50,477 nt of DNA from a virus. Position 1 is the first letter of the stretch. Each line of letters begins with the position of its first letter. Of this stretch, positions 27,067 to 42,573 are shown piece after piece. The translations under genes and the position numbers were made by a program. The notes beneath the pieces were generated by a model. That model saw only the letters and a list, made by a program, of their open reading frames with translations. It searched no databases and was not told where the DNA came from. The stretch lies in the IMG/VR virus record IMGVR_UViG_3300043469_002569, positions 1 through 50,477 of that record; one strand, 5' to 3'.

Positions 27067-28499
27067 ACCGCCTCAAGCACATCGCGCACCTGCTCTTGCC
27101 ACCTATTTTCGTGCCGAAGGCATGGGGCTCACCATACGAATCGGTAAACTGGTCTCCTCGTCGCGGGAGTGTGCCGGGCGCGTCACCAACCGACGCCCGC
27201 AACGAACTCACGCCGGGCGTCCGCACGGAGTTGGTTCGCAAGTCGCGATACATGCACAAGAACAGCGGTTTCGTGCGGGAGCTTGTCGCCAACATGGCGA
27301 TCTATTCGACTGGCGACGGCATCCGCGTCCAGGCGCAATCACCCGATCCTCAGTGGAACCGTACCGCAGAAGCCTATTTCGCGATGTGGTCGCCTCGCTG
27401 TGAAGTTACGCGGCGGTTTTCTTTCGAGGAATGCCAGGCCCTGGTTTGTCGCGGCATGGACATCGACGGCGAGTATTTCATCCACAAGACCCGCGACACC
27501 CAAGGCGAACCACGCATCCAGTTGATCGAATCCCACCGCGTAGGCGACCAGTTCAGTTCACAAGAAACCATCGACGGAGTTGGCCTCGATGCGTGGGGCG
27601 CACCGGTTTTCTATCGCACATTGGAGGACAACAGCAAACACCGTGATCTGCCCGCCGCGTCGGTTCTCCATATCCACGAACCCGAGTGGGCCGGTGGTGT
27701 CCGGTCTCACCCGACGATCCAGCATTCGATCAATCATGTGCTCGATGAAATGGAATTGCTAGCTCTCGAAAAGCACGCAGTGAAGGACAATGCCGACGTG
27801 TCTCGCATCCTCAAGACGGCTCGTGGTGAGATCGACGACAACGGTGACTTCGTGGTCGGTGGCGCGGCCGGCAGTGATTCCAGCGACCCGGTTTCGTTGC
27901 AACGCATCGTCGGCGGCAAACTGGTGGCACTCAAACCCGACGAGTCTCTCGACAGCTTCCAGTCCAATCGGCCATCACCGACCTTCACCGGTTTCCTGGA
28001 ACATCTGCGGCGTGACTCCGCGCTCGGTATGATTCCCTTCGAGTTTGCAGCGGATTCCAGCAAGGTCGGTGGCGCGGGTGTTAGATTGATTGTCGCCAAG
28101 GCGGATCGCCGCTTCTCGTTCCGCCAGATGATTCTCGAAAGCCGACTCATCAAACCGATCTGGGCCTATGTGATCGGCGATGCCATTGCCCGCGGATTCC
28201 TGCCACCGGTGGCAGGCTGGTGGAAGATCAGCTCCGTTCCTCCCAAGCGCGTGACTGTGGACGCCGGACGCGAGGCGCAACAAAACCGTGCCGACGTGGA
28301 AATGGGCCTGAAAACCCTGTCGGATCATTTTAACGAACAGGGTGCCGACTTTGGCGAGGAAATCGAACGCCGCGCCAGCGATGCCAAGCTCATCCTGGAT
28401 ACAGCGGCGAAATACGGAGTGCCGGTGGACATGCTCTGGAAACCGAATGGCATGCCTGTCACTCTGCCCGAGCCGGAAGAGCCACCGCCTGGTCGTTGA
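27063..28499 (+). CDS. Portal protein, lambda GpB family
   Basis: The 478-aa dodecameric vertex protein through which DNA passes. ASPTDARNELTPGVRTELVRKSRYMHKNSGFVRELVANMAIYSTGDGI (about 40-86) is the conserved GpB N-terminus. IDGEYFIHKTRD...IQLIESHRVGDQF and HIHEPEWAGGVRSHPTIQHSINHVLDEMELLALEKHAVKDNADV follow in the normal order. The gene follows the gpW-like gene by overlap and its TGA stop lies in the TTGACA box before the protease gene. Confidence 0.94.
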   Translation: MNRLKHIAHLLLPPIFVPKAWGSPYESVNWSPRRGSVPGASPTDARNELTPGVRTELVRKSRYMHKNSGFVRELVANMAIYSTGDGIRVQAQSPDPQWNRTAEAYFAMWSPRCEVTRRFSFEECQALVCRGMDIDGEYFIHKTRDTQGEPRIQLIESHRVGDQFSSQETIDGVGLDAWGAPVFYRTLEDNSKHRDLPAASVLHIHEPEWAGGVRSHPTIQHSINHVLDEMELLALEKHAVKDNADVSRILKTARGEIDDNGDFVVGGAAGSDSSDPVSLQRIVGGKLVALKPDESLDSFQSNRPSPTFTGFLEHLRRDSALGMIPFEFAADSSKVGGAGVRLIVAKADRRFSFRQMILESRLIKPIWAYVIGDAIARGFLPPVAGWWKISSVPPKRVTVDAGREAQQNRADVEMGLKTLSDHFNEQGADFGEEIERRASDAKLILDTAAKYGVPVDMLWKPNGMPVTLPEPEEPPPGR

Positions 28500-28501
28500 C
28501 A
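28496..28501 (+). promoter_or_regulatory. TTGAC start-associated box (TTGACA)
   Basis: 13 nt upstream of GTG 28515, capsid protease; CGCC-ATCCG-GGCG between. It includes the portal stop. Confidence 0.55.
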
Positions 28502-28514
28502 CCGCCATCCGGGC

Positions 28515-29825
28515 GTGAACCCGGTAATTCAACATCGCGAGTGGCTGATCCAACCTGAAGCGCTGCAATCCATGGCCGCATCGTTGCGGGGACTGGTGGA
28601 TCGCGGCGGATTCCTCCCGAAGCAGGCATCCGAAAGCCCGCTGCTCACCATCGAGGACGGCATCGGTGTGGTCGCCATCGAAGGGCCGATCCTGCGCAAG
28701 CCCGACCTCTTTGCCCGAATCTTTTTTGGTGCCACCAGTTCCGAAGACATCGGCGAGGCTTTACGTGAGGCGGGGGAGCGCGACGACATCAAAGCGGTGT
28801 TTCTCAACATCGACTCGCCTGGCGGCACCGTGGCCGGCACGCCGGAACTCGCAGCGGCGGTGAAGGCACTCAATGGAAGCAAGCCCGTCTATGCGTTCTC
28901 GTCCGGCCTCATGTGCTCGGCGGCCTATTGGATCGCCAGCCAGGCCCGCGCCATCTACGCCACGCCATCCGCTCAAGTAGGATCCATCGGCGTGGTGCAA
29001 GCGGTGATCGACAACACCGCCGCGCTCGATAAGGCGGGGCTCAAGGTCGAGGTTTTCTCCGTCGGCAAATACAAGGCGATGGGTGCGCCCGGCACTCCGC
29101 TAACAGACGACCAGCGCGAGTTGATTCAATCGAACCTCGCCGAAATCGCCGCCGAGTTTCACGACGCCGTGCTTTCCCGTGGCCGTGCGATTCCTGCCGA
29201 GGCGATGGAAGGTCAGACATTTAGCGGCAAGCAAGCCCAACGCCACAACCTCGCGGGCATGGTTCCCGACCGCGCTGATGCGATGCGCCGCTTGCGCGTC
29301 TATCACGCGTCGGTTGACACGGGATCACGGTCGATGAAGACCATCGAAGACGAACTCGCCGAAGCCCGCACTCAGGTCGCCAACCTGCAGCGGGACCACC
29401 AAGCCCAGACAGAACTGCTCAATGAAGCATCGACCAGCGTCGATTCGCTGCGCGGCGAAGTGGAGTTGCTTGCCGCCGAAATCGACACGCTGAAAGCGGA
29501 GCGCGACGAGGCGAAAAACCAAGTCACCAATCTAATCACCGAGCGCGATTCCGCCAGCGCTCGTGTTTCCTCGATGCAAACCCGCATCACCGAGCTGGAA
29601 GCATCGCAGTCCGACTTCGACCGCAAACTTCAACTCGATGTCGCCCGCGTCGTCGCCTCCACCGGCACCACGATGCCCGCCCAAGTGACCCCTGCCGGAG
29701 ATGCCTCCCAGGCTGCGGATCTTCACGCGCGTTTTGCCGCCATCACCGATCCCGCCGAGCAGACCGCCTTCTGGCGCAAGCTCACTCCCGAACAACAAGC
29801 CCTCATCCTCAAACACCAAGCCTGA
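28515..29825 (+). CDS. S49-family capsid protease with C-terminal scaffold (gpC/Nu3-like)
   Basis: A 436-aa protein starting at GTG 28515. The protease domain has NIDSPGGTVAGTPE (98-111), the serine nucleophile S135 in MCSAAYWIAS, GSIGVVQAVID (156-166) and the catalytic-type Lys187 in FSVGKYKAMGAPGTPLT, matching SppA/gpC. Residues about 275-380 are a strong coiled coil with heptads (ELAEARTQVANLQRDHQAQTELL...), and the tail is Ala/Thr-rich. As in lambda, the C-terminal region probably scaffolds the procapsid and the protease then matures it. A separate scaffold gene is not visible. Confidence 0.92.
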   Translation: MNPVIQHREWLIQPEALQSMAASLRGLVDRGGFLPKQASESPLLTIEDGIGVVAIEGPILRKPDLFARIFFGATSSEDIGEALREAGERDDIKAVFLNIDSPGGTVAGTPELAAAVKALNGSKPVYAFSSGLMCSAAYWIASQARAIYATPSAQVGSIGVVQAVIDNTAALDKAGLKVEVFSVGKYKAMGAPGTPLTDDQRELIQSNLAEIAAEFHDAVLSRGRAIPAEAMEGQTFSGKQAQRHNLAGMVPDRADAMRRLRVYHASVDTGSRSMKTIEDELAEARTQVANLQRDHQAQTELLNEASTSVDSLRGEVELLAAEIDTLKAERDEAKNQVTNLITERDSASARVSSMQTRITELEASQSDFDRKLQLDVARVVASTGTTMPAQVTPAGDASQAADLHARFAAITDPAEQTAFWRKLTPEQQALILKHQA

Positions 29826-29834
29826 TAGAAAGCC

Positions 29835-30731
29835 ATGTCCAACACCCTCACCAACGTCAAAGACATCAAGGTCGCCCAACGGGCGCTCATGCCCTTCATG
29901 TCCAACCTGCTGCCGGTCACGGCGTTCTCCACCGACTTCAGCCCGATGCCGGCCGAAAAACTCGATACCGTGCGTGTTCCGCTCGTTGGCGCGCCCAGCA
30001 CTTCGAGCGACTTCGCAGGCGACTACGCGGCCAATGCCGACTCGACGGTTACCGTGGTTCCGGTCACGCTGAACCGTCACAAATACAAGACCGTCCACGT
30101 CACCGCCAGAGAATCCGCCGAGACCTCGCTCACGGTGCTCGAAACCCTGGTGGAAGCCGCCGCCCAACAACTCGCCCAGGATGTGCTGGTGGACATCTTC
30201 AGTTGCATCACGCTCGCCAACTTCGGCGCTCCGGGCATCGCCGCGCTCGCCGCTACCGCCTTCGATTACAAGAAGGTGCTCAGTCTGCGCGATGCCTGCG
30301 GAATTGCCAAGATGCCACCCAACCCGCGTTCACTGATTCTGGACTCCGGTTACTACACCAACATGCTCGCCGACGATGTGGTGGCCAAGAGCTTCAACCT
30401 GAACCTCAACGCCCCGGCAGTCACCGAAGGCATGGTCAAGCGGATCGCCGGATTCAACCTGCACGAGACGACCCTCATCCCGTCGGATCACGCGGAAAAG
30501 CTCGTTGGCTTCGCGGCCCACTCCAGCGCCGTCGCGGTGGCCATGCGCTACCTTCAGCCGGTGGCCGACTACCAGCAAGCCGGTGCCGTCACTGATCCTG
30601 CCACGGGCATGACCTTCGGTTACCTCCGCTTCACCGACACCCGCGCAAACAAGATCTTCGTCACCCTCGAATGTCTTTACGGCTTCGCCCCGGCCAAAAC
30701 CGACGCCCTCAAGCGGATCGTCAAACCATAA
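29835..30731 (+). CDS. Major capsid protein
   Basis: A 298-aa protein immediately after the protease/scaffold. It begins MSNTLTNVKDIKVAQRALMPFMSNLLPVTAFSTDFSPM; the beta-rich middle SPMPAEKLDTVRVPLVG and the spine helix TSLTVLETLVEAAAQQLAQDVLVDIF fit an HK97-like coat of the short, P22-coat-like type. No decoration protein is visible beside it. A Rho-independent terminator follows 28 nt after its stop, consistent with very high expression. Confidence 0.85.
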   Translation: MSNTLTNVKDIKVAQRALMPFMSNLLPVTAFSTDFSPMPAEKLDTVRVPLVGAPSTSSDFAGDYAANADSTVTVVPVTLNRHKYKTVHVTARESAETSLTVLETLVEAAAQQLAQDVLVDIFSCITLANFGAPGIAALAATAFDYKKVLSLRDACGIAKMPPNPRSLILDSGYYTNMLADDVVAKSFNLNLNAPAVTEGMVKRIAGFNLHETTLIPSDHAEKLVGFAAHSSAVAVAMRYLQPVADYQQAGAVTDPATGMTFGYLRFTDTRANKIFVTLECLYGFAPAKTDALKRIVKP

Positions 30732-30759
30732 GCTTCTTTGGAGTTCGATTGGTATCCAT

Positions 30760-30797
30760 CACCCTCTCTCGGGAAACCGGGAGGGGGTGTTTTGTTT
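30760..30797 (+). terminator. Rho-independent terminator after the capsid gene
   Basis: A 13-bp stem (two G·U pairs) with GAAA loop, arms 30760-30772 and 30777-30789, followed by TTTTGTTT. It separates the head operon from the AbiE module. Confidence 0.9.
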
Positions 30798-30813
30798 GAA
30801 ATTTGCGGCATTC

Positions 30814-30830
30814 ATCAAGCCACGCTTGAT
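30814..30830. promoter_or_regulatory. Inverted repeat 1 of the AbiE operator
   Basis: ATCAAGC-CAC-GCTTGAT, perfect 7-bp arms. It lies within a longer imperfect direct repeat (about 40 bp from 30804) shared with 30877-30917. AbiEi antitoxins bind such paired inverted repeats to autoregulate. Confidence 0.7.
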
Positions 30831-30886
30831 CTATGTTGCAAATCTCAAACATTTCCCTTGCGTCCGTTTTGAATCTGCGCCATTGT

Positions 30887-30901
30887 TCAAGCCTGACTTG
30901 A
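30887..30901. promoter_or_regulatory. Inverted repeat 2 of the AbiE operator
   Basis: TCAAG-CCTGA-CTTGA, 5-bp arms, ending 3 nt before the antitoxin start codon, in the same context as inverted repeat 1 (both followed by TCTATG). Confidence 0.65.
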
Positions 30902-30904
30902 TCT

Positions 30905-31639
30905 ATGGAGGCAAATCGAATCAAAGCCCTGCAAACCACACTGCCGCGAGGCGCTCCCCTCGACACGGCGACACTGGCCGGTCTTGGCATCTCGGCGGCG
31001 CTCGCGCACGAGTATGTGAAAGCCGGATGGCTGGAAAAACTCGGGCGGGGAGTTTTCATGTTCGCCGGGGATGAACTGCAACACAACGAAACCCTCGCGT
31101 TCTTAGAGCCCAGAATTCCAGGTCTTCATGTGGCTGCCAAAACCGCGTTGGCGTGGCACGGATTCAGGCACAACGTCGCCGTCACAGAAACGACCATCCT
31201 GTGGGGAGACCACCGGATCGACCTGCCAAGCTGGTTTCAAAACCGTTTCCCTGCACGATACAGCTCATCCAGGCTGTTCGACGATGAACTCCCCGCTGGC
31301 ACCGGCATCGCTCCGATGCCCGAATTCCCAAACGGCCCCCGGGTTTCCAGCCCGGAACGCGCATTGTTGGAGATGCTCAGCGAGGTAGGTGTCTATCAGG
31401 AATTGGAGGAGGCGCGTGCCATCATGGAGAATGTGCGGCAACTTCGCTCCCTACAACTCAGACTGCTCCTGTCTCATTGCCGCATGGTCAAGGCGGTCCG
31501 TCTTTGCGTGGCGTGGGCGAGGGAGCTCGATCTTCCCTGGGCTGGTCACGCCAGGGAAGCCGCTTCGGATCGCATGGGATCGGGTCGTTGGATCACCCGG
31601 CTCAAGAACGGCAATACCCTCATCCTGAAACCCGAATGA
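30905..31639 (+). CDS. AbiEi-type antitoxin
   Basis: A 244-aa type IV antitoxin. The N-terminal winged helix is LPRGAPLDTATLAGLGISAALAHEYVKAGWLEKLGRGVFMFAGDE (about 13-57), and the C-terminal part has LHVAAKTALAWHGFRHNV, ILWGDHRIDLPSWFQ and SSPERALLEMLSEV, typical AbiEi_3 blocks. It would counter the nucleotidyltransferase toxin and repress its own promoter at the two inverted repeats upstream. It has its own promoter region after the capsid terminator and overlaps the toxin gene by 4 nt. Confidence 0.88.
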   Translation: MEANRIKALQTTLPRGAPLDTATLAGLGISAALAHEYVKAGWLEKLGRGVFMFAGDELQHNETLAFLEPRIPGLHVAAKTALAWHGFRHNVAVTETTILWGDHRIDLPSWFQNRFPARYSSSRLFDDELPAGTGIAPMPEFPNGPRVSSPERALLEMLSEVGVYQELEEARAIMENVRQLRSLQLRLLLSHCRMVKAVRLCVAWARELDLPWAGHAREAASDRMGSGRWITRLKNGNTLILKPE

Positions 31640-32553
31640 ACCAACCCTACCTCGATGCCGTCAGACTGCTGCTGGCCGTAGCGCCATCCATTTTTCGACA
31701 ACCAGGATTCGCCCTCAAGGGAGGCACAGCGATCAACCTTTTTCTGCGGGAAATGCCTCGCCTGTCGGTGGACCTTGATTTGGTCTTTGCCGATCACCGA
31801 CCGGGGCGTGACGATGCCATGCGGATGATTTCCAGTCATCTTGAATTGATCCGGGCCGATCTCAACGAGCTTGGTATGACCTGCCATGCGGCAACCACCC
31901 AGGGTGGCGAGGAATTGAAACTCTTCATCGAGCGGAACCGCACCCGCGTCAAAGTGGAGGTGAATCACGTCTTCCGCGGAACCATCCTGCCAGTGGAGCC
32001 GCGACCGCTGACGCTTGAAGCGCAGGACACATTCTTCACCGACATCGAAATCCCGCTTCTTCATCCGGACGAACTCTACGGCAGCAAGTTGGTGGCGGCC
32101 ATGGATCGGCAACACCCCCGCGACATCTTCGACATCCTCAAGCTCTACGAAGAGGACGGGCTTACCGATGGAATCATCGATTGCTTCGTTTGCTACCTCG
32201 CCGGACACAACCGGCCGATCCATGAAGTCCTGTTCGCGAACGAGATCGACATCACGTCATCCCACGCGAACGAGTTCGTCGGCATGACGAAGGACCCGGT
32301 GCCGCTCGAAATCCTGCTGGAAACCCGCAGACGACTCTTTGCCGAGCTTCCCACCCGAATGAGCCGCAATCACCGCTCATTCCTGATGAGCCTCGCTGAG
32401 GCGCAACCCGACTGGTCGCTCATGTCCTGCCCGCATCTTGCGGAAATGCCGGCGCTTCGCTGGAAGCTCTCCAATCTCGAACGCCTTAGAAGCAGCAATT
32501 CCACCAAGTTCGCGCAGCAATCCAGGGAGCTGAAGAAGCGCTTTGGAATCTGA
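31636..32553 (+). CDS. AbiEii-type nucleotidyltransferase toxin
   Basis: A 305-aa nucleotidyltransferase. FALKGGTAINLFLREMPRLSVDLDLVFADH contains GG at 29-30 and the metal-binding D46 and D48 (SVDLD), followed by the basic motif region LKLFIERNRTRVKVEVNH and SKLVAAMDRQHPRDIFDI. Family members block growth by nucleotidyl transfer, in known cases to tRNA 3' ends. Start ATG 31636 overlaps the antitoxin stop. Within a phage it may serve as superinfection exclusion or prophage maintenance. Confidence 0.9.
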   Translation: MNQPYLDAVRLLLAVAPSIFRQPGFALKGGTAINLFLREMPRLSVDLDLVFADHRPGRDDAMRMISSHLELIRADLNELGMTCHAATTQGGEELKLFIERNRTRVKVEVNHVFRGTILPVEPRPLTLEAQDTFFTDIEIPLLHPDELYGSKLVAAMDRQHPRDIFDILKLYEEDGLTDGIIDCFVCYLAGHNRPIHEVLFANEIDITSSHANEFVGMTKDPVPLEILLETRRRLFAELPTRMSRNHRSFLMSLAEAQPDWSLMSCPHLAEMPALRWKLSNLERLRSSNSTKFAQQSRELKKRFGI

Positions 32554-32607
32554 GACGCAGATCATTTCAAATGAACAAGTAGGTTCTTTGGAAGGGTGAT
32601 AGAGCGA

Positions 32608-32613
32608 TTGACA
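32608..32613 (+). promoter_or_regulatory. TTGAC start-associated box (TTGACA)
   Basis: 13 nt upstream of GTG 32627, head completion gene; arms CACGC/GCGTG enclose the spacer and reach the GTG. Not in a stop codon. Confidence 0.55.
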
Positions 32614-32626
32614 CGCCGAATGGTGC

Positions 32627-32935
32627 GTGAACTCGATCCAAGCCGCCGCTGCCGAGGCCTTCGTTGAAATCCTGCGTGATGCGGGTGTGCCTGTGACCAT
32701 CGGAGGCAAGGACTATCAGGCGATGGTCTCGCCAAGCGGACTCGCCGTCGATCTTGAGGAAGGCGGTTTCACCCAAGACGGCGCACTCACCGTAAGGTTG
32801 CTCGTGGCGCACCTACCAACTCCACCGCCTGCCCACAACGACACGATCCTTATCGGCAGCGAACGCTACAAGATTGAGGAAATCAACCGCAAACCCGGCG
32901 CAGGCATCATCGAATATCGAGTGGCGCGCCGCTGA
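32627..32935 (+). CDS. Head completion / head-tail joining protein
   Basis: A 102-aa protein starting at GTG 32627 (VNSIQAAAAEAFVEILRDAGVPVTIGGKDYQAMVSP). It is beta-rich with ...TILIGSERYKIEEINRKPGAGIIEYRVARR, typical of gpFII-type joiners. It is the first gene of the completion module, preceded by TTGACA (32608-32613, 13 nt) with arms CACGC/GCGTG around the start. Assignment is by position, size and pattern. Confidence 0.7.
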   Translation: MNSIQAAAAEAFVEILRDAGVPVTIGGKDYQAMVSPSGLAVDLEEGGFTQDGALTVRLLVAHLPTPPPAHNDTILIGSERYKIEEINRKPGAGIIEYRVARR

Positions 32936-32946
32936 AAATCACCACC

Positions 32947-33348
32947 ATGAACCAAGCCATCGAAGATTACCTGGCCGGCCTTTTCACCTCCGCGCAGCTT
33001 GTTCCAGCGCCCGAGGTTTTCACCGGGACTTCCTCCGACATCCGCACGCCTGAATCCCACGCGATTCTCGTGCTGGCAGACTCTATTGAAAACGTGGTCG
33101 GCCCGCTACATCGGGCGACGGTGAAAATCCTCGTCTCGTCACCCACCGACAACCGGGCGCAACACGCCACTCTCGCCCATGCGGTGAAGGGCATCATGGA
33201 AGGCGTGCTACCTGCGGCGAACAGATTCACCATCGGCGGATTCAGGACGAAAGCCAACTCGACCGCCGTGACGGATGACGACCGCTGGCTCACCACTATC
33301 GAAGGGATTCTCGGTGTGGATTGGACGCCGGTTGACAACACGCCGTAA
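32947..33348 (+). CDS. Tail completion / minor tail protein (gpZ/gpU-like position)
   Basis: A 133-aa alpha/beta protein (MNQAIEDYLAGLFTSAQLVPAPEVFTGTSSDIRTPESHAILVLADSIEN). The pattern ATVKILVSSPTDNRAQHATLAHAVKGIMEGVL and WLTTIEGILGVDW is common in phage tail terminator proteins. Its last codons hold the TTGACA box of the next gene. It lacks a Shine-Dalgarno sequence and has a CACC leader. Confidence 0.65.
   Translation: MNQAIEDYLAGLFTSAQLVPAPEVFTGTSSDIRTPESHAILVLADSIENVVGPLHRATVKILVSSPTDNRAQHATLAHAVKGIMEGVLPAANRFTIGGFRTKANSTAVTDDDRWLTTIEGILGVDWTPVDNTP
33332..33337 (+). promoter_or_regulatory. TTGAC start-associated box (TTGACA)
   Basis: 16 nt upstream of ATG 33354, tail tube-like protein, inside the end of the previous gene. 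Confidence 0.5.
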
Positions 33349-33353
33349 GAGTC

Positions 33354-33668
33354 ATGCCCGCCACCTTCGGAGTCACCAACTTGCACGGACTCGCGCCCGC
33401 CACCGGCCACGCCCAGGAAGCGTCTGCGGACTCATCCATCGAAGTGGCAACGCTGCGGGATTCGCTTGGCGTGACCGTTGTGGCGAAGCCGAAGAAGCTC
33501 ATCACCCGCAGCATCACGCTATCCGGAAAAGGCACTGTGAATTTTGGAGATGTCGCCGCCGGTGCGATCACCAAGGGCGCGGCGTTCGTGACCTCCGTCA
33601 AGGTGACCGAAAGCAACGACGATTTTCCATCCTTCGAGATTCAGGCCGTCGCCTACGACGACATCTAA
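33354..33668 (+). CDS. Tail tube-like protein, paralog 1
   Basis: A 104-aa beta-rich protein (MPATFGVTNLHGLAPATGHAQEASADSSIEV) with C-terminus ITKGAAFVTSVKVTESNDDFPSFEIQAVAYDDI. That end aligns with ITGGTTIITTVKNSQTNEDYNSFELSGVNH of the next gene, so the two are probable tandem paralogs. Size and position before the chaperones suggest a small tail tube or sheath-like protein. Follows TTGACA by 16 nt. Confidence 0.6.
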   Translation: MPATFGVTNLHGLAPATGHAQEASADSSIEVATLRDSLGVTVVAKPKKLITRSITLSGKGTVNFGDVAAGAITKGAAFVTSVKVTESNDDFPSFEIQAVAYDDI

Positions 33669-33682
33669 CACTCATCACTTCC

Positions 33683-34018
33683 ATGCCCGCCGCGTTCAAC
33701 GAAATCGGAGTCAAGTGCGTCACCGCCGCCCTAGTGGAGAGCGTGGACGTGCAGAAGCAGCTTGAACACAAGATCATCAAAAAGAGCGATGGCGCGTTCG
33801 AGACGGGCAACCGCTATGACCCGTCCTTCAGTTTCTCCGTCAAGGGCCGGGGCGTCGCTGATGAATCCCTGCTGGGTGGAGCCTCCGCCGCCTACGTGCC
33901 CGAACAGATCACGGGCGGTACCACCATCATCACCACCGTCAAGAACTCCCAGACCAACGAGGATTACAACTCCTTCGAACTATCAGGAGTGAACCATCCC
34001 GCCGCAGGCGCGGCATGA
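33683..34018 (+). CDS. Tail tube-like protein, paralog 2
   Basis: A 111-aa protein starting at ATG 33683 (MPAAFNEIGVKCVTAALVESVDVQKQLEHKIIKKSDGAFETGNRYDPSFSFSVKGRG). Beta-rich, with the shared C-terminal pattern of paralog 1. Either could be the tube subunit and the other a minor form; a specific call is not supported. Confidence 0.65.
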   Translation: MPAAFNEIGVKCVTAALVESVDVQKQLEHKIIKKSDGAFETGNRYDPSFSFSVKGRGVADESLLGGASAAYVPEQITGGTTIITTVKNSQTNEDYNSFELSGVNHPAAGAA

Positions 34019-34053
34019 CGCGTCCATTTTCAACGATCACCTAAAAATCACCC

Positions 34054-34521
34054 ATGAAAGAAGGAACCACCATCAGCGTCGTGCGCGATCACGACACGAA
34101 ACCCACCGAAAGCCGCAACACCCGATTGGTTGCCGCAGCCCTCTCCAGCGGCGGCATGTTCGCCACCGAAGCCGCCTATTCCGACACGGTCGAACAGACG
34201 CCCAACGGCGCGAAACGCACCGTCACCTGGCTGATGGACGGAGCGGCCAAACTCAGCTTCGAGCCCATCGAGGTCGCGGAAAGCATCACCTTCGACGAGT
34301 TCCGCAAGCGTTATGAATCGCTCGCCTGGTGCGAGGCCAACGCCAACCACCCCATTGCCTATCTGCGGGCGATGAACGACCAGCACAACCGACTGCTCGA
34401 CAAGGTCAAGACAATGCGCCCGATGCTGCTGATCCGCAAAGGAAAGCGCATCGCCATCGTGCCGAGCGGTTCCGACGAGGCGTCGAAAGCCACCCGCGAG
34501 CAAATCCTTTCCGAATTCTAA
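34054..34521 (+). CDS. Hypothetical tail-module protein
   Basis: A 155-aa product (MKEGTTISVVRDHDTKPTESRNTRLVAAALSSGGMFATEAAYSDTVEQ). It has a beta-rich N-terminus with RTVTWLMDGAAKLSF and a helical C-terminus (FDEFRKRYESLAWCEANANHPIAYLRAMNDQHNRLLDKVKTMRPMLLIRKGKRIAIVPS). No family recognised. Position just before the chaperone pair suggests a structural or assembly role. Confidence 0.65.
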   Translation: MKEGTTISVVRDHDTKPTESRNTRLVAAALSSGGMFATEAAYSDTVEQTPNGAKRTVTWLMDGAAKLSFEPIEVAESITFDEFRKRYESLAWCEANANHPIAYLRAMNDQHNRLLDKVKTMRPMLLIRKGKRIAIVPSGSDEASKATREQILSEF

Positions 34522-34525
34522 CATC

Positions 34526-34945
34526 ATGAACGACCGCGAACTTCAACTTGCCACCGGCATGATCGACAGCGGGGAACGCCGGATCGGCAACCTCAAGCTG
34601 CGTCCATACACCATGGGCTCGATGCAACTGGCCTATCTGCTCAAGCTCACCATGTTCACCCGTGGCAAGGATGATCCACCGTTGGAGCTTGATGATTTGG
34701 AAGAGCAGCGGCAGATCATGGCATTTGCATGGATGCAGTCGGCTGATGAAGATGACATCGCGGACGCCGTCCGTGACGACACCGTGGATCGGTGTGTGCT
34801 CAAGTTCTCTCTCAATGTCACTTTCGACATGCTCCCGGGTTTGATGGCGGAAATCAACCGGATCAACGCGATGCTTGCTGCATCCAGTGTCCGCGTCGAA
34901 AGCAAGTATCCGTCCAGCGATGACGATGCGCCGGGAAAGTCCTGA
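34526..34945 (+). CDS. Tail assembly chaperone (gpG-like)
   Basis: A 139-aa protein (MNDRELQLATGMIDSGERRIGNLKLRPYTMGSMQLAYLLKLTMFTRG) that plays the lambda gpG role of holding the tape measure protein during tail assembly. Near its 3' end the heptamer GGGAAAG (34933-34939) is read G GGA AAG in this frame, the same slippery sequence used by lambda. A -1 slip leads to the gpT-like extension. The zero-frame stop is TGA at 34943-34945. Confidence 0.87.
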   Translation: MNDRELQLATGMIDSGERRIGNLKLRPYTMGSMQLAYLLKLTMFTRGKDDPPLELDDLEEQRQIMAFAWMQSADEDDIADAVRDDTVDRCVLKFSLNVTFDMLPGLMAEINRINAMLAASSVRVESKYPSSDDDAPGKS

Positions 34946-35187
34946 ACCCCGGCTGGCTGGCAAGCGCGGTGTTCACCATCGCCAAGGACACCGGTTGGAG
35001 CGAGGACTTCATCATCTGGCGACTGCCGATGGCCCGTGCCCTCCAATATTACCATTGCTCGCTCCAAGCGGCCAACCTCTGGACGCTTGAACCACCTACC
35101 GAAGAGGCGCTCCAGGCACTCGCTCCGGACGAGCTGATCGGCCTCATCGACCGCATGGTTGACGATGGCGACGATGACGATGGGTGA
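34526..35187 (+). CDS. Tail assembly chaperone gpGT-like fusion made by -1 frameshift
   Basis: Ribosomes slipping at 34933-34939 would continue into the -1 frame at VLNPGWLASAVFTIAKDTGWSEDFIIWRLPMARALQYYHC, stopping at 35187, giving about 220 aa. The extension has no convincing start of its own, and the N-P-G-W-L opening and W-R-L-P segment are typical T-domain features. Lambda-type phages need both G and GT in a fixed ratio. Seen: heptamer, frame and overlap. Inferred: actual slippage rate. Confidence 0.85.
34933..34939 (+). promoter_or_regulatory. Programmed -1 frameshift slippery site GGGAAAG
   Basis: Exact lambda G/GT heptamer, in the right frame (G GGA AAG) six nucleotides before the zero-frame stop (34943-34945). 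It couples the G-like and T-like frames. Confidence 0.88.
35159..35164 (+). promoter_or_regulatory. TTGAC start-associated box (TTGACG)
   Basis: 15 nt upstream of ATG 35180; it lies within the gpT-like frame. Confidence 0.45.
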
Positions 35188-35854
35188 TGAAGTGAAATTC
35201 AAACTGCATGTCGATGAGTTCCAGCGCGCCGCCGACCGGCTCGCCGCTTACTCGAAGCGCGACGGCGAGACGTTCATGAAGGAACAGGTCCGCGGCTTCA
35301 TCCGACACCTGTTGGATTTCACTCCGCCCAACCGTGGTAGCACGCGAGGCGTGAAGGCGAAGAAGCTCGGCGAGCAGGCGATCACCGGCGACATTCGCGC
35401 CGTGTTTCGCGGGGTGTCTGATCCGAAGCGGGCTGATGTGGATTCGTTGGCGCAAATGCGATCGATACTCAAATCACGGCGGAAGAGCGGCACCATACGC
35501 GTGGCCAAGGGCGGCAAAAAGCTGAAGGCTCCGAAGGCACTGATTGCCGAGCTGATCAAGGCGAAGAAGGCGCGTGTTGGCTATTTGGCATCGGCATGGG
35601 CGACGGCGGCGCAGAGTGTTGGAAAAATCCGTGTGCCCGCGTGGGTGTCTCGCCACGCCGCGCCCGGTAGCACCGACATCACGGTGAAGGATGGCGAGAT
35701 CAGCGCGTCGATCACCAACGCGGTGGAGTGGGCCGCCAAGGTCAATGGCCTGCGGGCGCGGGTGAATGCCGCGCTCCGGGTGCAGACCCGTTCCATGGAA
35801 AAACGGCTGCTCTATTTCTTCGCCAACGTGAAGGGGAAGTCCGGCTTCGATTGA
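35180..35854 (+). CDS. Hypothetical minor tail protein
   Basis: A 224-aa basic protein, start ATG 35180 (MGDEVKFKLHVDEFQRAADRLAAYSKRDGETFMKEQVRGFIRHLLDFTPP). A longer in-frame start TTG 35159 is less likely because it forms part of a TTGACG box. It is helical and Lys/Arg-rich, with a globular C-terminus (ISASITNAVEWAAKVNGLRARVNAALRVQTRSMEKRLLYFF). Position between chaperones and tape measure suggests a tail structural part. Function not recognised. Confidence 0.7.
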   Translation: MGDEVKFKLHVDEFQRAADRLAAYSKRDGETFMKEQVRGFIRHLLDFTPPNRGSTRGVKAKKLGEQAITGDIRAVFRGVSDPKRADVDSLAQMRSILKSRRKSGTIRVAKGGKKLKAPKALIAELIKAKKARVGYLASAWATAAQSVGKIRVPAWVSRHAAPGSTDITVKDGEISASITNAVEWAAKVNGLRARVNAALRVQTRSMEKRLLYFFANVKGKSGFD

Positions 35855-35856
35855 CA
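35851..35856 (+). promoter_or_regulatory. TTGAC start-associated box (TTGACA)
   Basis: 16 nt upstream of ATG 35873, tape measure; GCCAC-CC-GTGGC between. It includes the stop of the previous gene. Confidence 0.55.
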
Positions 35857-35872
35857 TGCCACCCGTGGCCAG

Positions 35873-37561
35873 ATGGCCAAGCTCACCGCACTGCTGACAC
35901 TCAACACGGCTGGATTCCAGTCCGCGTTGAAGACTGCCAAGTCGGAAACCAGCGGCTTGAAAAACTCGATGGCCGGCATGTCGTCGGGCGCTTCCAAGGG
36001 GTTTGCGTCGATGGGCACCGCCATGAAATCGGTCGCCAAGGGAACGGCTGTTGTCGCCGCTGGAGTGGCCGCAGCAGGAGCCGCCATCGGTGCGCTAACC
36101 TACAAGCTGATCCTGTCGGGTGAGGCAGCGAACTCTGCCGACGCCCGCGTCCGCAACATCGCCAAGTCGATGGGTCTGTTCGGCGACCAGTCCGACGCGG
36201 TGGCCGAGCGACTCAACAACCTCGCGGACAAGATCGAGTTGCAAACCGGAGTGGATGGCAATGCGATTCAAATGACCCAAGCGAAACTCCTCACCTTCAA
36301 GGACCTCGCCAACACCGCCGACGAGCTGGGCGGCAATTTTGATCGGGCCACCCAGGCGGCAGTGGACATGGCGGCGGCGGGTTTCGGCGCTGCCGAACAG
36401 AACGCCGTCCAGCTCGGCAAGGCGCTCAACGATCCGGTCAATGGCCTCGCTGCCTTGCGGCGGTCGGGCATCACCTTCACGGAAGATGAGAAAGCGAAGA
36501 TCAAGACTCTGGCCGAATCCAACCGGATGCACGAGGCGCAGGCGCTGGTTCTCGCCGCCATCGAAAAGCAGGTCGGCGGCACGGCGGCGGCGACCGCGGA
36601 CGCGTCCGTCCAGATCAAGGCCGCGCTGAATCAGGGCTTTGAAGAAGTGGGCAAACCACTGGCGGAAGCACTCGCATCCATCACGCCGCAGTTCCTTGAA
36701 TTCGTAGAAATGGCGAAGCCCAAGCTGGCGGAAGCCGGACAGTTCCTGGTGGCGATCTTCCGCAGCGGCGAGGCCCTCAACCTCGTCTGGTCGTCACTCA
36801 AGCTAGCCTTCGCACAGAGCGTGAATTTCCTGTGGGCCACACTGCGGGCGACCATCGCCGCCACCGGCCAATACATCGTCGAATATTTCAAGACAGCGGT
36901 CACCTATTTCCAAATCCTCACGACTCCCGAGTTCTGGAGCGGGATGGGCAATGCCATCATCGGGATTTTTCTATCAGCCATCAGCTTCCTTCAAAAAGGA
37001 TTCTCGGAAATCATCGAGGTGGCGCGCCCGCTGGCCGAGTTGTTCGGCAAGGAGGATGCGTTCAACGGCATCCAGAAGACGATCCGCGAAAGCGCCTCGA
37101 TCCTCGATGAAGACGCGGCGGCACGGTTCTCGAAGGCGGGCGACCTGTTGGAACCTGCCGCCCAAAAGATCGCCCAGCGTCTGGCCGAGGCCGGTGAAAA
37201 CGTGAAGACCCGTTTCAGTGAGACTTTCGCCAACACCGCGGAAGCTATCGACACGTCCGGCATGAAGCGCGAGTTCGGCGACACCGTGGAGCGCATCAAA
37301 GCGGCCATTCCTCCGGTGAAGACGGGCAAGCAAATCGGAATGGCGGCAGCGGACGAAAAACCAACGGCTCCGGCAGTCATCGCGGGCGGGTCAGGACAGT
37401 TAGGTTCTTTCGCACAATCCATGAACATGCTCTTCGGTCGCAGCGCGAATGCAGGGCTGCTAGAGGAAAACAAGCGGCAGACCGACTGGCTCAAGAAGAT
37501 CCACGACAACACCAAGAACAGGGGCAACACCACGACACCGGGGGAGGCGGTTTTCGCGTAA
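35873..37561 (+). CDS. Tail length tape measure protein
   Basis: A 562-aa helical protein. It opens MAKLTALLTLNTAGFQSALKTAKSETSGLKNSMAGMSSGASKGFASMG, with a hydrophobic stretch near 58-84 (VVAAGVAAAGAAIGALTYKLIL), then GNFDRATQAAVDMAAAGFGAAEQNAVQLGKALNDPVNGLAALRRSGITFTEDEKAKIKTLAESN, the conserved TMP_2-like block. A second hydrophobic region lies near 355-385. At about 0.15 nm per residue, the usual ratio, the tail would be near 80 nm. Its start follows TTGACA by 16 nt with the GCCAC-CC-GTGGC inverted repeat. Confidence 0.93.
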   Translation: MAKLTALLTLNTAGFQSALKTAKSETSGLKNSMAGMSSGASKGFASMGTAMKSVAKGTAVVAAGVAAAGAAIGALTYKLILSGEAANSADARVRNIAKSMGLFGDQSDAVAERLNNLADKIELQTGVDGNAIQMTQAKLLTFKDLANTADELGGNFDRATQAAVDMAAAGFGAAEQNAVQLGKALNDPVNGLAALRRSGITFTEDEKAKIKTLAESNRMHEAQALVLAAIEKQVGGTAAATADASVQIKAALNQGFEEVGKPLAEALASITPQFLEFVEMAKPKLAEAGQFLVAIFRSGEALNLVWSSLKLAFAQSVNFLWATLRATIAATGQYIVEYFKTAVTYFQILTTPEFWSGMGNAIIGIFLSAISFLQKGFSEIIEVARPLAELFGKEDAFNGIQKTIRESASILDEDAAARFSKAGDLLEPAAQKIAQRLAEAGENVKTRFSETFANTAEAIDTSGMKREFGDTVERIKAAIPPVKTGKQIGMAAADEKPTAPAVIAGGSGQLGSFAQSMNMLFGRSANAGLLEENKRQTDWLKKIHDNTKNRGNTTTPGEAVFA

Positions 37562-40336: not shown

Positions 40337-41002
40337 ATGAGAAGACGCTCCTCCAAGCCAAGCCCTGAGATTGCCGGGAAATCATCAAAAAAGGGCAATG
40401 GCTGTCGGCATGGGTTCACAGGAACCCCCAAAACCCTCGCGGGCTTGGTTGCTGAATACCAGGAATCTCAGAAATACGCCGAAAAGGGATGGAATCCGCT
40501 GAGGTCCTTGATGGAAGGCTATCGAGGACTAGCCGATCTTGAGACGGCCATCAAAAGCGCAACGCTTGCCGAGGATCTTGTGGGCAAATCCTACCGAAAA
40601 GAGGAAAACGGCAAAGTCAAACGCCATGGACACCAGCGTAGAATCAAGCGCTCTGTGCTCGAAAGTGCGAGACGAGTCCTTGCATCCAAATCCAACATCG
40701 AGAAGTTGAAATCCTGCAAGTCATTCGAAGAGATTTTCGAACTCGTAGCCCGCTGCTGCGATCAGATACCTGGTACAGGACCGCTCTACATTTACGACAC
40801 GGCTCTGCGAATCGGCGCGTTCTCAAAAAGATTGCCGAAGCAGGTGCATCTGCAAGCAGGTGCCCTGTTGGGTGCCCGAGCACTGGGTCTTGATGTGAAA
40901 AACTCCCCGCTTCCGTCGAGCGTATTCCCGAAACCTTTGCAAGGTCTTGTTCCTCATGAGATCGAGAGATTTTCTCTGCATCTACAAAGACCATCTAATT
41001 AA
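40337..41002 (+). CDS. Cargo protein 1, hypothetical
   Basis: A 221-aa protein from the 2.4-kb insert. The N-terminal 30 residues are very basic and low-complexity (MRRRSSKPSPEIAGKSSKKGNG). The middle (LAGLVAEYQESQKYAEKGWNPLRSLMEGYRGLADLETAIKSA) is helical. The C-terminal half, CDQIPGTGPLYIYDTALRIGAFSKRLPKQVHLQAGALLGARALGLDVK, has a hairpin-like I-P-G-T-G-P turn that recalls helix-hairpin-helix or DNA-glycosylase-like motifs. Function unknown. Lower G+C and no phage-module fit suggest acquisition. Confidence 0.65.
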   Translation: MRRRSSKPSPEIAGKSSKKGNGCRHGFTGTPKTLAGLVAEYQESQKYAEKGWNPLRSLMEGYRGLADLETAIKSATLAEDLVGKSYRKEENGKVKRHGHQRRIKRSVLESARRVLASKSNIEKLKSCKSFEEIFELVARCCDQIPGTGPLYIYDTALRIGAFSKRLPKQVHLQAGALLGARALGLDVKNSPLPSSVFPKPLQGLVPHEIERFSLHLQRPSN

Positions 41003-41043
41003 GGTGAAAATTTGATCAATTAAACACAAGCGAATCAAAAGCC

Positions 41044-42573
41044 ATGACCCAAGAATCAGTCAAAATCGAAGGACAGCCCGCCCAAAAGAAAAAAATGAAT
41101 GGCTGCTTGATGGCGACCATGATTTTCGTGATCGTGTGTATACTCGCGGTAGGTGGCTGCTTTCTTCTAGGGGGAGCCGCTCTCGTCGGCTCGGCAAAAA
41201 AGCAAGCAGAGGAAGAATCGGAAAAACTCAAATCTTTGCCAAATGCAAGTCCTTCAGGTCTTCAGCCTACAGGGGAACTTGCTGATCTTTTTAATTTGGG
41301 TTCCGACCACACGGACATTCAACGTAAAAACAAAGAGAAAGAAATCAAAGGACAGGTTGTGGACTGGACACTATCGGTTTATGAAGTCAGCAAATCTGGA
41401 GAAAAATACAGAATACAGACCAAATCGAGCATTGGCGGTTATGGCAATGAAGTCGCCGCATTTGTAGAGCTGACGGCTCAATCTCAGGAAGAAGTCACAT
41501 TCATCGAAGGACTTAAAACCAATGATAGATTTCGCTTTAAGGGATGCATTGCCGGGATAGGCATGATGAGGACCCTGGAGATCAAGCCCGCTATCCTGCT
41601 AAATGCCGACACTGCACCCTCAAGCACGGGTATGACAGCTACCGAAAGAAAGGTAGATCAGTCGTTGGAGCAGGGTGAGCGTCAATTAAATCACGAAGTT
41701 GAGCAGGCTCTCGCGATTGGGAAAGCCGTCCGTGACGCTAAAGACTCTGCTTCCGAAAAACCCGTTCCGAATGACGTAATTCCAGGTAATACGTTGAATG
41801 ATTTGCCTGCGGAGGAAGGCGCGAATGGGTCGATAGACAATGCTGCAATCGCTCAAGCTCGTCAGGAACTAGAACTTGAAAAAGCAAAACTTGAACGCGA
41901 GCGAATTGAGTTTGAGCGAGAAAAGCTCAGAATCCAAGCATCGTCAGTTCCTAGTCCGAGTGCAAGTGAACCAACAATCGAAGATGGAGAAGTTTTTGTA
42001 ACGTCCATCACAAAAAATGACATTCATAATTCAAAAGGAGTTCGAATCACTGATCCTGTTTTGGTTTTGATGCAGGATCGAGCTAATGTGCATCGTTTCG
42101 GAAATCCTGATGGTGATGATGTTGATCAGTTCTTCAGAGAGCCCGAAAATCGCGCTAAAATCAGATCTTATCTGGAGCGTGGTTCATTTCCTCAGGACGT
42201 GAAAAATTCGATTCTCATCGGCAAGGGGGAAAAATTTAGGGTGAGAATTTACAAAAATAACGTTGGCAAAAACTGTGTCGATGTTGGTTTTCAAATAAGC
42301 CAAAAGGATTCTTCCTCGATAGAACGAGAAGATCCTTTAGAACTTCCTAGTAAGGAAGCGGATCGTAATGTCGGTAGCGTCGATCTCTACGAAATCATCG
42401 ATTCCGAAAGCAACATCCGTGAAGGTCCTGGAACAAATTACCCCATCATCCGCAAATCACGAAAGGGCGAGGTAGGCGAGCATCAATCTGTCAAGATGGG
42501 CTGGATGAAACTTCAGTTCTCCGACGATTCAATGGGGTGGGTTCACGAGCAAAACGTTAAATCGAAGAATTAG
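41044..42573 (+). CDS. Cargo protein 2: membrane protein with OB-like, coiled-coil and SH3 domains
   Basis: A 509-aa protein. One transmembrane segment near 21-49 is followed by an OB-fold-like domain (about 95-185: EKEIKGQVVDWTLSVYEVSKSGEKYRIQTKSS...), a coiled coil (about 274-305, ARQELELEKAKLERERIEFEREK) and a C-terminal bacterial SH3 domain (about 447-509, DLYEIIDSESNIREGPGTNYPIIRKSRKGEVGEHQSVKMGWMKLQF). Such layouts are host-type envelope proteins rather than phage structural parts. Nearby 60-nt stretches drop to about 35% G+C (42001-42060), against the high-G+C phage backbone. It may protect the host envelope or exclude other phages; this is speculation. Confidence 0.75.
   Translation: MTQESVKIEGQPAQKKKMNGCLMATMIFVIVCILAVGGCFLLGGAALVGSAKKQAEEESEKLKSLPNASPSGLQPTGELADLFNLGSDHTDIQRKNKEKEIKGQVVDWTLSVYEVSKSGEKYRIQTKSSIGGYGNEVAAFVELTAQSQEEVTFIEGLKTNDRFRFKGCIAGIGMMRTLEIKPAILLNADTAPSSTGMTATERKVDQSLEQGERQLNHEVEQALAIGKAVRDAKDSASEKPVPNDVIPGNTLNDLPAEEGANGSIDNAAIAQARQELELEKAKLERERIEFEREKLRIQASSVPSPSASEPTIEDGEVFVTSITKNDIHNSKGVRITDPVLVLMQDRANVHRFGNPDGDDVDQFFREPENRAKIRSYLERGSFPQDVKNSILIGKGEKFRVRIYKNNVGKNCVDVGFQISQKDSSSIEREDPLELPSKEADRNVGSVDLYEIIDSESNIREGPGTNYPIIRKSRKGEVGEHQSVKMGWMKLQFSDDSMGWVHEQNVKSKN

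What the first reader, a model, noticed from the sequence alone, without database searches (positions are those of the whole stretch)
30814..32553. AbiE toxin-antitoxin pair inserted between major capsid and head-completion genes
The pair has its own operator (two inverted repeats with shared flanks) and lies behind a strong terminator, so it is uncoupled from the late operon. Carriage of an abortive-infection type module by a phage within its structural genes suggests superinfection exclusion or prophage maintenance.
Basis: partly seen in the sequence, partly recalled or inferred. Interest (0 to 1): 0.52.

Follow-up and report, generated by a model that had tools for sequence, protein, structure and literature searches.

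The report
AbiE toxin–antitoxin in phage cargo slot
A phage of freshwater Akkermansia-like bacteria carries a growth-arrest toxin and its antidote in a swappable cargo bay just behind its capsid gene, and other cargo in that bay often still sits behind the pair's DNA control site.

Summary
Window 30905-31639 encodes an AbiEi antitoxin and 31636-32553 an AbiEii toxin. All four toxin motifs are intact, the best fold match is MenT4, and the pair is under purifying selection. Two dyads, O1 and O2, precede it, 72 bp apart. The same spacing (72-73 bp) holds in 6 AbiE copies, including one in a bacterial chromosome, so the operator reading is supported. The 'insulating' terminator is not the pair's own: empty relatives carry it directly before the head-closure gene. 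The pair is not structural. Of 52 dereplicated relatives with both slot ends, 30 are bare (79-226 bp) and 22 carry cargo (585-7428 bp): AbiE, a SoFic homologue, a zeta-toxin-like protein, PP2C/kinase genes and giant secreted proteins. Six relatives are integrated prophages with integrases, five at tRNA genes; one carries AbiE. So this is an exchangeable moron in a capsid-adjacent hotspot: a known kind, new host group and position. Least expected: O1 lies in front of unrelated cargo or in bare slots in 14 loci without AbiE, half-intact in a 15th. Defence or prophage maintenance is plausible but untested.

The parts
29835..30731 (+). major capsid protein gene (left edge of the cargo slot)
   Evidence: phrog_283 E 5e-26; 80 viral and 49 genome relatives kept
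30732..32626 (.). cargo slot between MCP and Hc1 (1895 bp here; 79-7428 bp in relatives)
30760..30789 (+). intrinsic terminator of the phage backbone, also present in bare slots
30793..30851 (.). O1: 28-nt imperfect inverted repeat, 3-nt centre; presumed upstream AbiEi operator
30866..30917 (.). O2: second copy, centre 72 bp from O1, overlapping the AbiEi start codon
30905..31639 (+). AbiEi antitoxin / autorepressor, 244 aa
31636..32553 (+). AbiEii nucleotidyltransferase toxin, 305 aa; GGx15DLD, KLVAAMDR, RDIFD motifs intact
30786..32562 (+). unit shared at 92.6% nucleotide identity with a bacterial chromosome (L142)
32606..32614 (+). GATTGACAC, found (exactly or with small changes) just before Hc1 in the bare and filled slots printed; role unknown
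32627..32935 (+). head-closure protein Hc1 gene (right edge of the slot)
   Evidence: phrog_82 E 1e-4

Best explanation
The pair is a complete type IV AbiE toxin-antitoxin module carried as exchangeable cargo (a moron) in a hypervariable slot between the MCP and head-closure genes of a temperate phage family of Verrucomicrobiota. AbiEi represses the operon by binding O1 and O2, which lie about seven helical turns apart with O2 over the start codon, and it neutralises AbiEii. When AbiEi falls short, as after infection by another phage or loss of the prophage, AbiEii, a MenT-like nucleotidyltransferase probably acting on tRNA, stops growth. The carrier gains by blocking rivals or stabilising itself. 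Cargo is swapped by recombination in the conserved flanks (MCP 3' end, terminator, O1 on the left; Hc1 on the right), which stacks, replaces or deletes cargo and often leaves O1 behind. Shown by sequence: gene identity, intact motifs, operator architecture, slot variability, repeats, relics, prophage state of relatives. Inferred: binding, toxicity, trigger, benefit, recombination mechanism.
For: Families and motifs. AbiEii fold: best of 350,542 PDB chains is MenT4, E 3.5e-7, TM 0.56-0.58; MenT3 next. dN/dS 0.12-0.19 wherever computable. Slot: 30 bare and 22 filled of 52 dereplicated; control gaps protease-MCP 4-40 bp (n=93), Hc1-next gene 5-11 bp (n=32) against MCP-Hc1 84-7428 bp (n=34). Exchange: window versus L016, MCP dS 0.33 but AbiEii dS 1.76. 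Recurrence: AbiE in the same slot in the window, L003, L004, L016, L083, L100, L146. Stacking: L004's pair lies between 164-nt direct repeats of MCP 3' end plus terminator, 90% identical; L031 repeats terminator then O1 in front of a second cargo gene. Relics: L128 and L046 keep O2-like DNA and the abiEi start region fused to other cargo. Chromosomal copy L140/L142 with both operators, followed by an MCP-like fragment. Temperate kin: integrase 13-19 kb from MCP in 6 prophages, tRNA gene at 5 of 6.
Against: No expression, binding or toxicity data. No integrase in the window; it ends 1.6 kb after its homology with the L006 record stops, where the integrase lies 3.3 kb further on. No consensus promoter. 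L016 and L083 have O1 but no detectable O2. The backbone terminator and apparent lack of one after AbiEii argue against clean isolation from the late operon. AbiEi model too poor to use (pLDDT 41). AbiE is in only 2 of 52 dereplicated slots.
Confidence: 0.75

Rival explanations
1. O1 is not an AbiE operator but a recombination or attachment site of the slot, at which cargo cassettes are inserted by an unknown recombinase.
For: O1 sits 57-65 bp after the MCP stop in nearly all carriers, with AbiE, Fic-type and secreted-protein cargo, and in bare slots L015, L048, L091; L031 has it between two cargo genes; in L034 only the left half is intact.
Against: O1 and O2 travel with AbiE to a bacterial chromosome and the 72-73 bp pair recurs at AbiE outside the slot (L147) and with another dyad sequence (L146). 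Only one element copy is seen at cargo, not one at each end; stacking uses the terminator and MCP 3' end instead.
Confidence: 0.12
2. The pair mainly stabilises the prophage (addiction, or AbiEi restraining excision) rather than excluding other phages.
For: In print, AbiE stabilises plasmids (PMC3985639, passages) and AbiEi restrains excision of a Streptococcus suis ICE (PMC11062541, passages). Relatives are integrated prophages, one with AbiE.
Against: Most family members lack AbiE: 2 of 52 dereplicated slots have it. The window itself shows no integrase.
Confidence: 0.35
3. The pair is passive cargo, selected for neither defence nor maintenance.
For: Rapid turnover, relics and deletions in the slot; much other cargo has no defence match.
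Against: Purifying selection with all motifs kept across copies differing by up to 33% in protein; repeated presence in the slot.
Confidence: 0.15

Closest known systems
AbiE type IV toxin-antitoxin systems (Streptococcus agalactiae AbiEi/AbiEii; PMC3985639, PMC7319586, passages read)
   Same: Antitoxin then toxin in one operon; wHTH AbiEi families; hGGx15DhD and motifs III and IV; inverted repeats in the promoter.
   Different: S. agalactiae has two 23-bp repeats 3 bp apart; here two such pairs lie 72 bp apart, the second over the start codon. Carried inside a phage late operon.
M. tuberculosis Rv2827c-Rv2826c (MenA4-MenT4; PMC7319586, passages read)
   Same: Toxin fold: MenT4 is the top PDB match. 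Promoter with two pairs of inverted repeats (four half-sites) within 131 bp of the start.
   Different: Repeat spacing differs; sequence too far apart to be found by profile search of PDB chains. Not described there as phage cargo.
[quoted passage not shown]
   Same: Small locus of high turnover between two conserved phage genes, holding defence and other genes.
   Different: Here the slot lies between MCP and head closure in the late region of Verrucomicrobiota phages. In P2 it lies between replication gene and portal, in Vibrio prophages between cI and integrase. Much of the cargo here has no defence match.
Phage morons (definition as in PMC4378225, passages read)
   Same: Extra genes between two genes that are adjacent in relatives.
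   Different: The upstream terminator belongs to the backbone; no downstream terminator was found in the window (some relatives have one at the right end).

Membership tests
AbiE type IV TA | two-gene operon, AbiEi-family antitoxin first, AbiEii/DUF1814 toxin second | tested here: met
   ATGA overlap
AbiE type IV TA | NTase motifs I-IV of the toxin | tested here: met
   G29 G30, D46 x D48, K151/R158, R162 D163 xx D166 invariant in 6 of 6 aligned copies, compared with motifs in PMC3985639
AbiE type IV TA | toxin fold of the AbiEii/MenT class | tested here: met
   MenT4 top PDB hit, E 3.5e-7; model mean pLDDT 72.8
AbiE type IV TA | paired inverted repeats in the promoter | tested here: met
AbiE type IV TA | AbiEi binds the repeats and represses the operon | not testable with these tools
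   needs gel shift and reporter assays
AbiE type IV TA | AbiEii toxic, neutralised by AbiEi; phage resistance | not testable with these tools
   needs expression and plaque assays
phage moron | inserted between two genes adjacent in relatives | tested here: met
   30 bare of 52 dereplicated relatives; bare junctions
phage moron | own promoter | tested here: inconclusive
   0 sigma-70 consensus sites in 28000-36000; Verrucomicrobiota promoters may differ
phage moron | own terminator | tested here: not met
   upstream terminator is backbone; none on the + strand between AbiEii and Hc1
phage defence hotspot | short locus of high turnover between conserved phage genes | tested here: met
   22 filled slots of 585-7428 bp among 52; controls
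phage defence hotspot | cargo dominated by antiviral systems | tested here: inconclusive
   AbiE, SoFic (E 1e-112), PDC-M45A-like; zeta-toxin-like; many others without a defence match

The most novel reading that the evidence does not exclude
O1 is a shared control site of the slot: cargo inserted behind it comes under AbiEi control in trans, so an AbiEi-expressing prophage would silence or time the cargo of co-infecting relatives (operator capture), and selection keeps O1 after AbiE is lost. Dyad symmetry is nearly as high without AbiE (211 of 308, 69%; 11 distinct copies) as with it (122 of 168, 73%; 6 copies), and in S. suis AbiEi is reported to bind another operon's promoter (PMC11062541). 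Recent exchange would explain the same data.
Probability: 0.2. Interest if true: 0.65.

Novelty: new member of a known kind. Interest (0 to 1): 0.45.

Why it matters
It places a cargo hotspot next to the capsid gene of temperate Verrucomicrobiota phages, a group with no MCP relative among 50,697 phage records. It gives conserved anchor genes (MCP, Hc1) for mining unknown defence and lysogenic-conversion genes from metagenomes. The leftover AbiE operators are a fossil record of cargo turnover and raise a testable question: can an antitoxin from one prophage control another's cargo?

Tried and rejected
Universal or structural gene pair: rejected, 30 of 52 dereplicated slots are bare. Chance palindrome: rejected for the whole O1, not for its short core alone. 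Terminator as part of the module: rejected. O1 as a slot recombination site: I held this after and dropped it when L140, L146 and L147 showed the two-dyad architecture travelling with AbiE. attC-like (integron) site: considered from recalled consensus only and dropped. A first element scan with a wrong gap length gave 0 hits; corrected. NCBIfam gave no family. PDB sequence profiles gave none. The AbiEi structure model was unusable. The viral fold library gave no AbiE-like full-length match. AbiEii against phage records: one weak partial hit of 50,697, unannotated, not pursued. AbiEi in 13 genomes of the family of G001: only the known prophage copy.

Rows dropped before counts: of 129 MCP-recruited loci (80 of 117 kept; 49), 121 had a usable MCP 3' end, 91 had MCP identity of 75% or more, 69 of these had both slot ends, 52 after dereplication. 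The 22 without a right end include AbiE carriers L003 and L004. The window, L083, L085, L089 and L146 are outside that count because they were the query or were found by other queries.

Full report
OBSERVATION. The window is a 50,477-base virus record. At 30905-31639 and 31636-32553 it encodes AbiEi (244 aa) and AbiEii (305 aa), overlapping by ATGA. The left neighbours are the head maturation protease and major head protein; the right neighbour is a head-closure protein. No PHROG family matches either AbiE protein. Upstream lie a strong terminator (30760-30789), then O1 (30793-30851) and O2 (30866-30917), two related inverted repeats. The whole O1 dyad, 22 of 28 positions, exceeds 20,000 shuffles (maximum 18). 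The short 7-of-9 core alone is not significant.

IS IT A REAL AbiE? The toxin keeps hGGx15DhD (GGTAINLFLREMPRLSVDLD), the K/R of motif III and the RDxxD of motif IV, invariant in 6 of 6 aligned copies, as described in PMC3985639 (passages). Its AlphaFold2 model (mean pLDDT 72.8) matches MenT4 of M. tuberculosis best (E 3.5e-7, TM 0.56-0.58), then MenT3. A paper seen only as a search listing (PMC10435456) says MenT toxins extend tRNA acceptor stems, and a section title in PMC7725324 calls an AbiE toxin a predicted tRNA nucleotidyltransferase; that is the basis for proposing tRNA as target. dN/dS between copies is 0.12-0.19 wherever it could be computed; synonymous change was saturated in four of the five comparisons with L083, where no ratio could be given.

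THE SLOT. The MCP query found 117 relatives in viral contigs (80 kept) and 49 loci in genomes, all Verrucomicrobiota by record title where a group is named, mainly Akkermansiaceae and other freshwater MAGs (one record is titled only 'bacterium'). Downstream of MCP the distance to the head-closure gene is hypervariable: 52 dereplicated loci with both ends comprise 30 bare slots (79-226 bp) and 22 filled ones (585-7428 bp). Neighbouring gaps are fixed: protease-MCP 4-40 bp in 93 loci, Hc1 to next gene 5-11 bp in 32. In a related subgroup a 170-aa gene lies directly after MCP and the slot follows it. Cargo includes AbiE; a Fic protein (PADLOC SoFic, E 1e-112, tested on L097; L002, L035 and L037 cluster with it); a zeta-toxin-like protein (L012); Sel1/trypsin (L002); DnaJ and metallophosphatase genes (L038); an exonuclease (L046); DUF488, dual-OB, PP2C and kinase-FGE genes (L047); leucine-rich repeats (L096); and secreted giants with FGE, C-type lectin and TSP3 domains. 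Several tested cargo proteins matched nothing.

THE TERMINATOR IS BACKBONE. In bare slots (for example L005, L017, L018, L023, L036, L045) the same terminator follows MCP and a GATTGACAC-like motif precedes Hc1 directly. Essential head and tail genes lie downstream, so transcription presumably passes this terminator; it may tune capsid to head-closure stoichiometry (inference). No + strand terminator was found between AbiEii and Hc1. The claim that the pair is uncoupled from the late operon is thus not shown.

THE OPERATORS. A profile of O1 from six AbiE-bearing copies, searched over 137 loci (1.65 Mb), hits only the slot or DNA beside AbiE. A pattern scan of all viral contigs gave 12 stretches; 9 are loci or copies of loci already seen with O1 in the slot, and the 3 new ones (L083, L085, L089) lie in it too. 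O1 and O2 centres are 72 bp apart in the window, L004, L140, L100 and L147 and 73 bp in L146, whose dyads have another sequence (AACT-ATG-AGTT); the start codon lies 11 nt past the O2 centre in 5 of 6. L147 is outside the slot and L140 is chromosomal. So the architecture belongs to the AbiE module. Two copies, L016 and L083, have O1 but no O2 that I could find. In print, S. agalactiae AbiEi binds two 23-bp repeats 3 bp apart, and Rv2827c binds two pairs (PMC7319586, passages); the arrangement here, two pairs with 3-nt centres, is closest to the latter.

RELICS AND EXCHANGE. O1 also occurs without AbiE in L002, L015, L026 (contig ends just after it), L031, L033, L035, L037, L038, L039, L042, L048, L085, L089 and L091, and as a left half in L034. 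L015 and L048 have O1 and no cargo; L091 keeps O1 plus what looks like the Fic leader. L046 and L128 keep O2-like DNA and the abiEi start region fused to other cargo. L010 ends inside O2 and is probably an AbiE carrier. In L004 the pair lies between 164-nt direct repeats (90% identical) of the MCP 3' end and terminator, 1932 bp apart, followed by another cargo gene. L031 repeats terminator and O1 before a second cargo gene; L007, L008, L009, L014 and L051 have a second terminator at the right end. Window and L016 have close MCPs (dS 0.33) but distant toxins (dS 1.76), so AbiE was replaced in one of them. Together this favours recombination in conserved flanks rather than a dedicated recombinase; that is inference.

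CHROMOSOMAL COPY. An Akkermansiaceae MAG (G005) carries AbiE at 93% and 94% protein identity beside a recO-like gene (gene name from recalled sequence features; no family search was run on it), aligned to window 30786-32562 at 92.6%, including the last bases of the phage terminator and both operators. It is followed by a fragment resembling the MCP 3' end, the same junction as in L004 (88.8% over 134 nt), then by genes like slot cargo. This suggests movement from phage to chromosome; a misassembled MAG contig cannot be excluded.

LYSOGENY. The window has no tyrosine integrase or resolvase match. Six relatives in large MAG contigs have an integrase 13-19 kb from MCP, with a tRNA gene at its start region in 5 of 6; one, L100 in G001, carries AbiE. 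In a virus record with 97% MCP identity (L006) the integrase lies 3.3 kb beyond the point where homology with the window stops, and the window ends 1.6 kb beyond it, so its absence says little. Of 12 virus records searched, the window among them, 7 have the integrase.

FUNCTION. Best reading: AbiEi autorepresses through O1/O2 and neutralises AbiEii; loss of AbiEi frees a nucleotidyltransferase that arrests growth. In print AbiE gives phage resistance and plasmid stability (PMC3985639, abstract in passages) and stabilises an ICE (PMC11062541). Which benefit counts here is open. I put exclusion of rivals slightly ahead because the slot also holds other putative defence genes.

NOVELTY. AbiE is known, morons are known (PMC4378225) and prophage hotspots of defence genes are known (PMC9122126; its passages name P2 replication-portal, Vibrio cI-integrase and Bacillus sites). 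The present slot, capsid-adjacent in Verrucomicrobiota phages, was not found in my paper searches (open-licence papers only; mostly titles and abstract starts). I file it as a new member of a known kind. The reuse or survival of O1 in front of other cargo is the least expected part.

Noticed in passing
L010, L013, L018-L020, L025-L029, L034, L035, L040, L041, L043, L045, L054 and others, between portal and protease: A second hypervariable slot: gap over 250 bp in 11 of 45 measured loci, up to 3704 bp.
   Followed up: partly
L054:1683-3103: bAvd-like protein (PF22296) followed by a reverse transcriptase (PF00078) in the portal-protease slot; FGE/C-type-lectin genes are common cargo in this family, so a diversity-generating retroelement is possible.
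   Followed up: partly
L120:4252-5091: Response-regulator plus CAP12/Pycsar TIR domain (PF10137) protein in the portal-protease slot.
   Followed up: no
L018:4824-6568: Overlapping two-gene pair (324 and 259 aa) with no Pfam match; the second looks nucleotidyltransferase-like by eye, perhaps another TA pair.
   Followed up: no
window 32606-32614 and relatives: TTGACA-containing motif a short distance before the head-closure gene in bare and filled slots, also in distant relatives with MCP identity near 64%.
   Followed up: no
L004 contig end (9394-9480): Fragment of the family integrase (29 aa, 76% identity) shortly after the second cargo gene; the order of genes there is odd.
   Followed up: no
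L028, L034, L040, L041, L042, L044: Very large ORFs (up to 2062 aa) as slot cargo; L044 has FGE-sulfatase, three C-type lectin stretches and TSP3 repeats.
   Followed up: partly
window 41001-42000: G+C drops to 46% against about 60% elsewhere, near an amidase-like gene.
   Followed up: no
L052-L054, L056-L059, L096-L100, L103-L105, L130, after MCP: A 170-aa gene directly after MCP in one subgroup, perhaps a capsid decoration protein.
   Followed up: no
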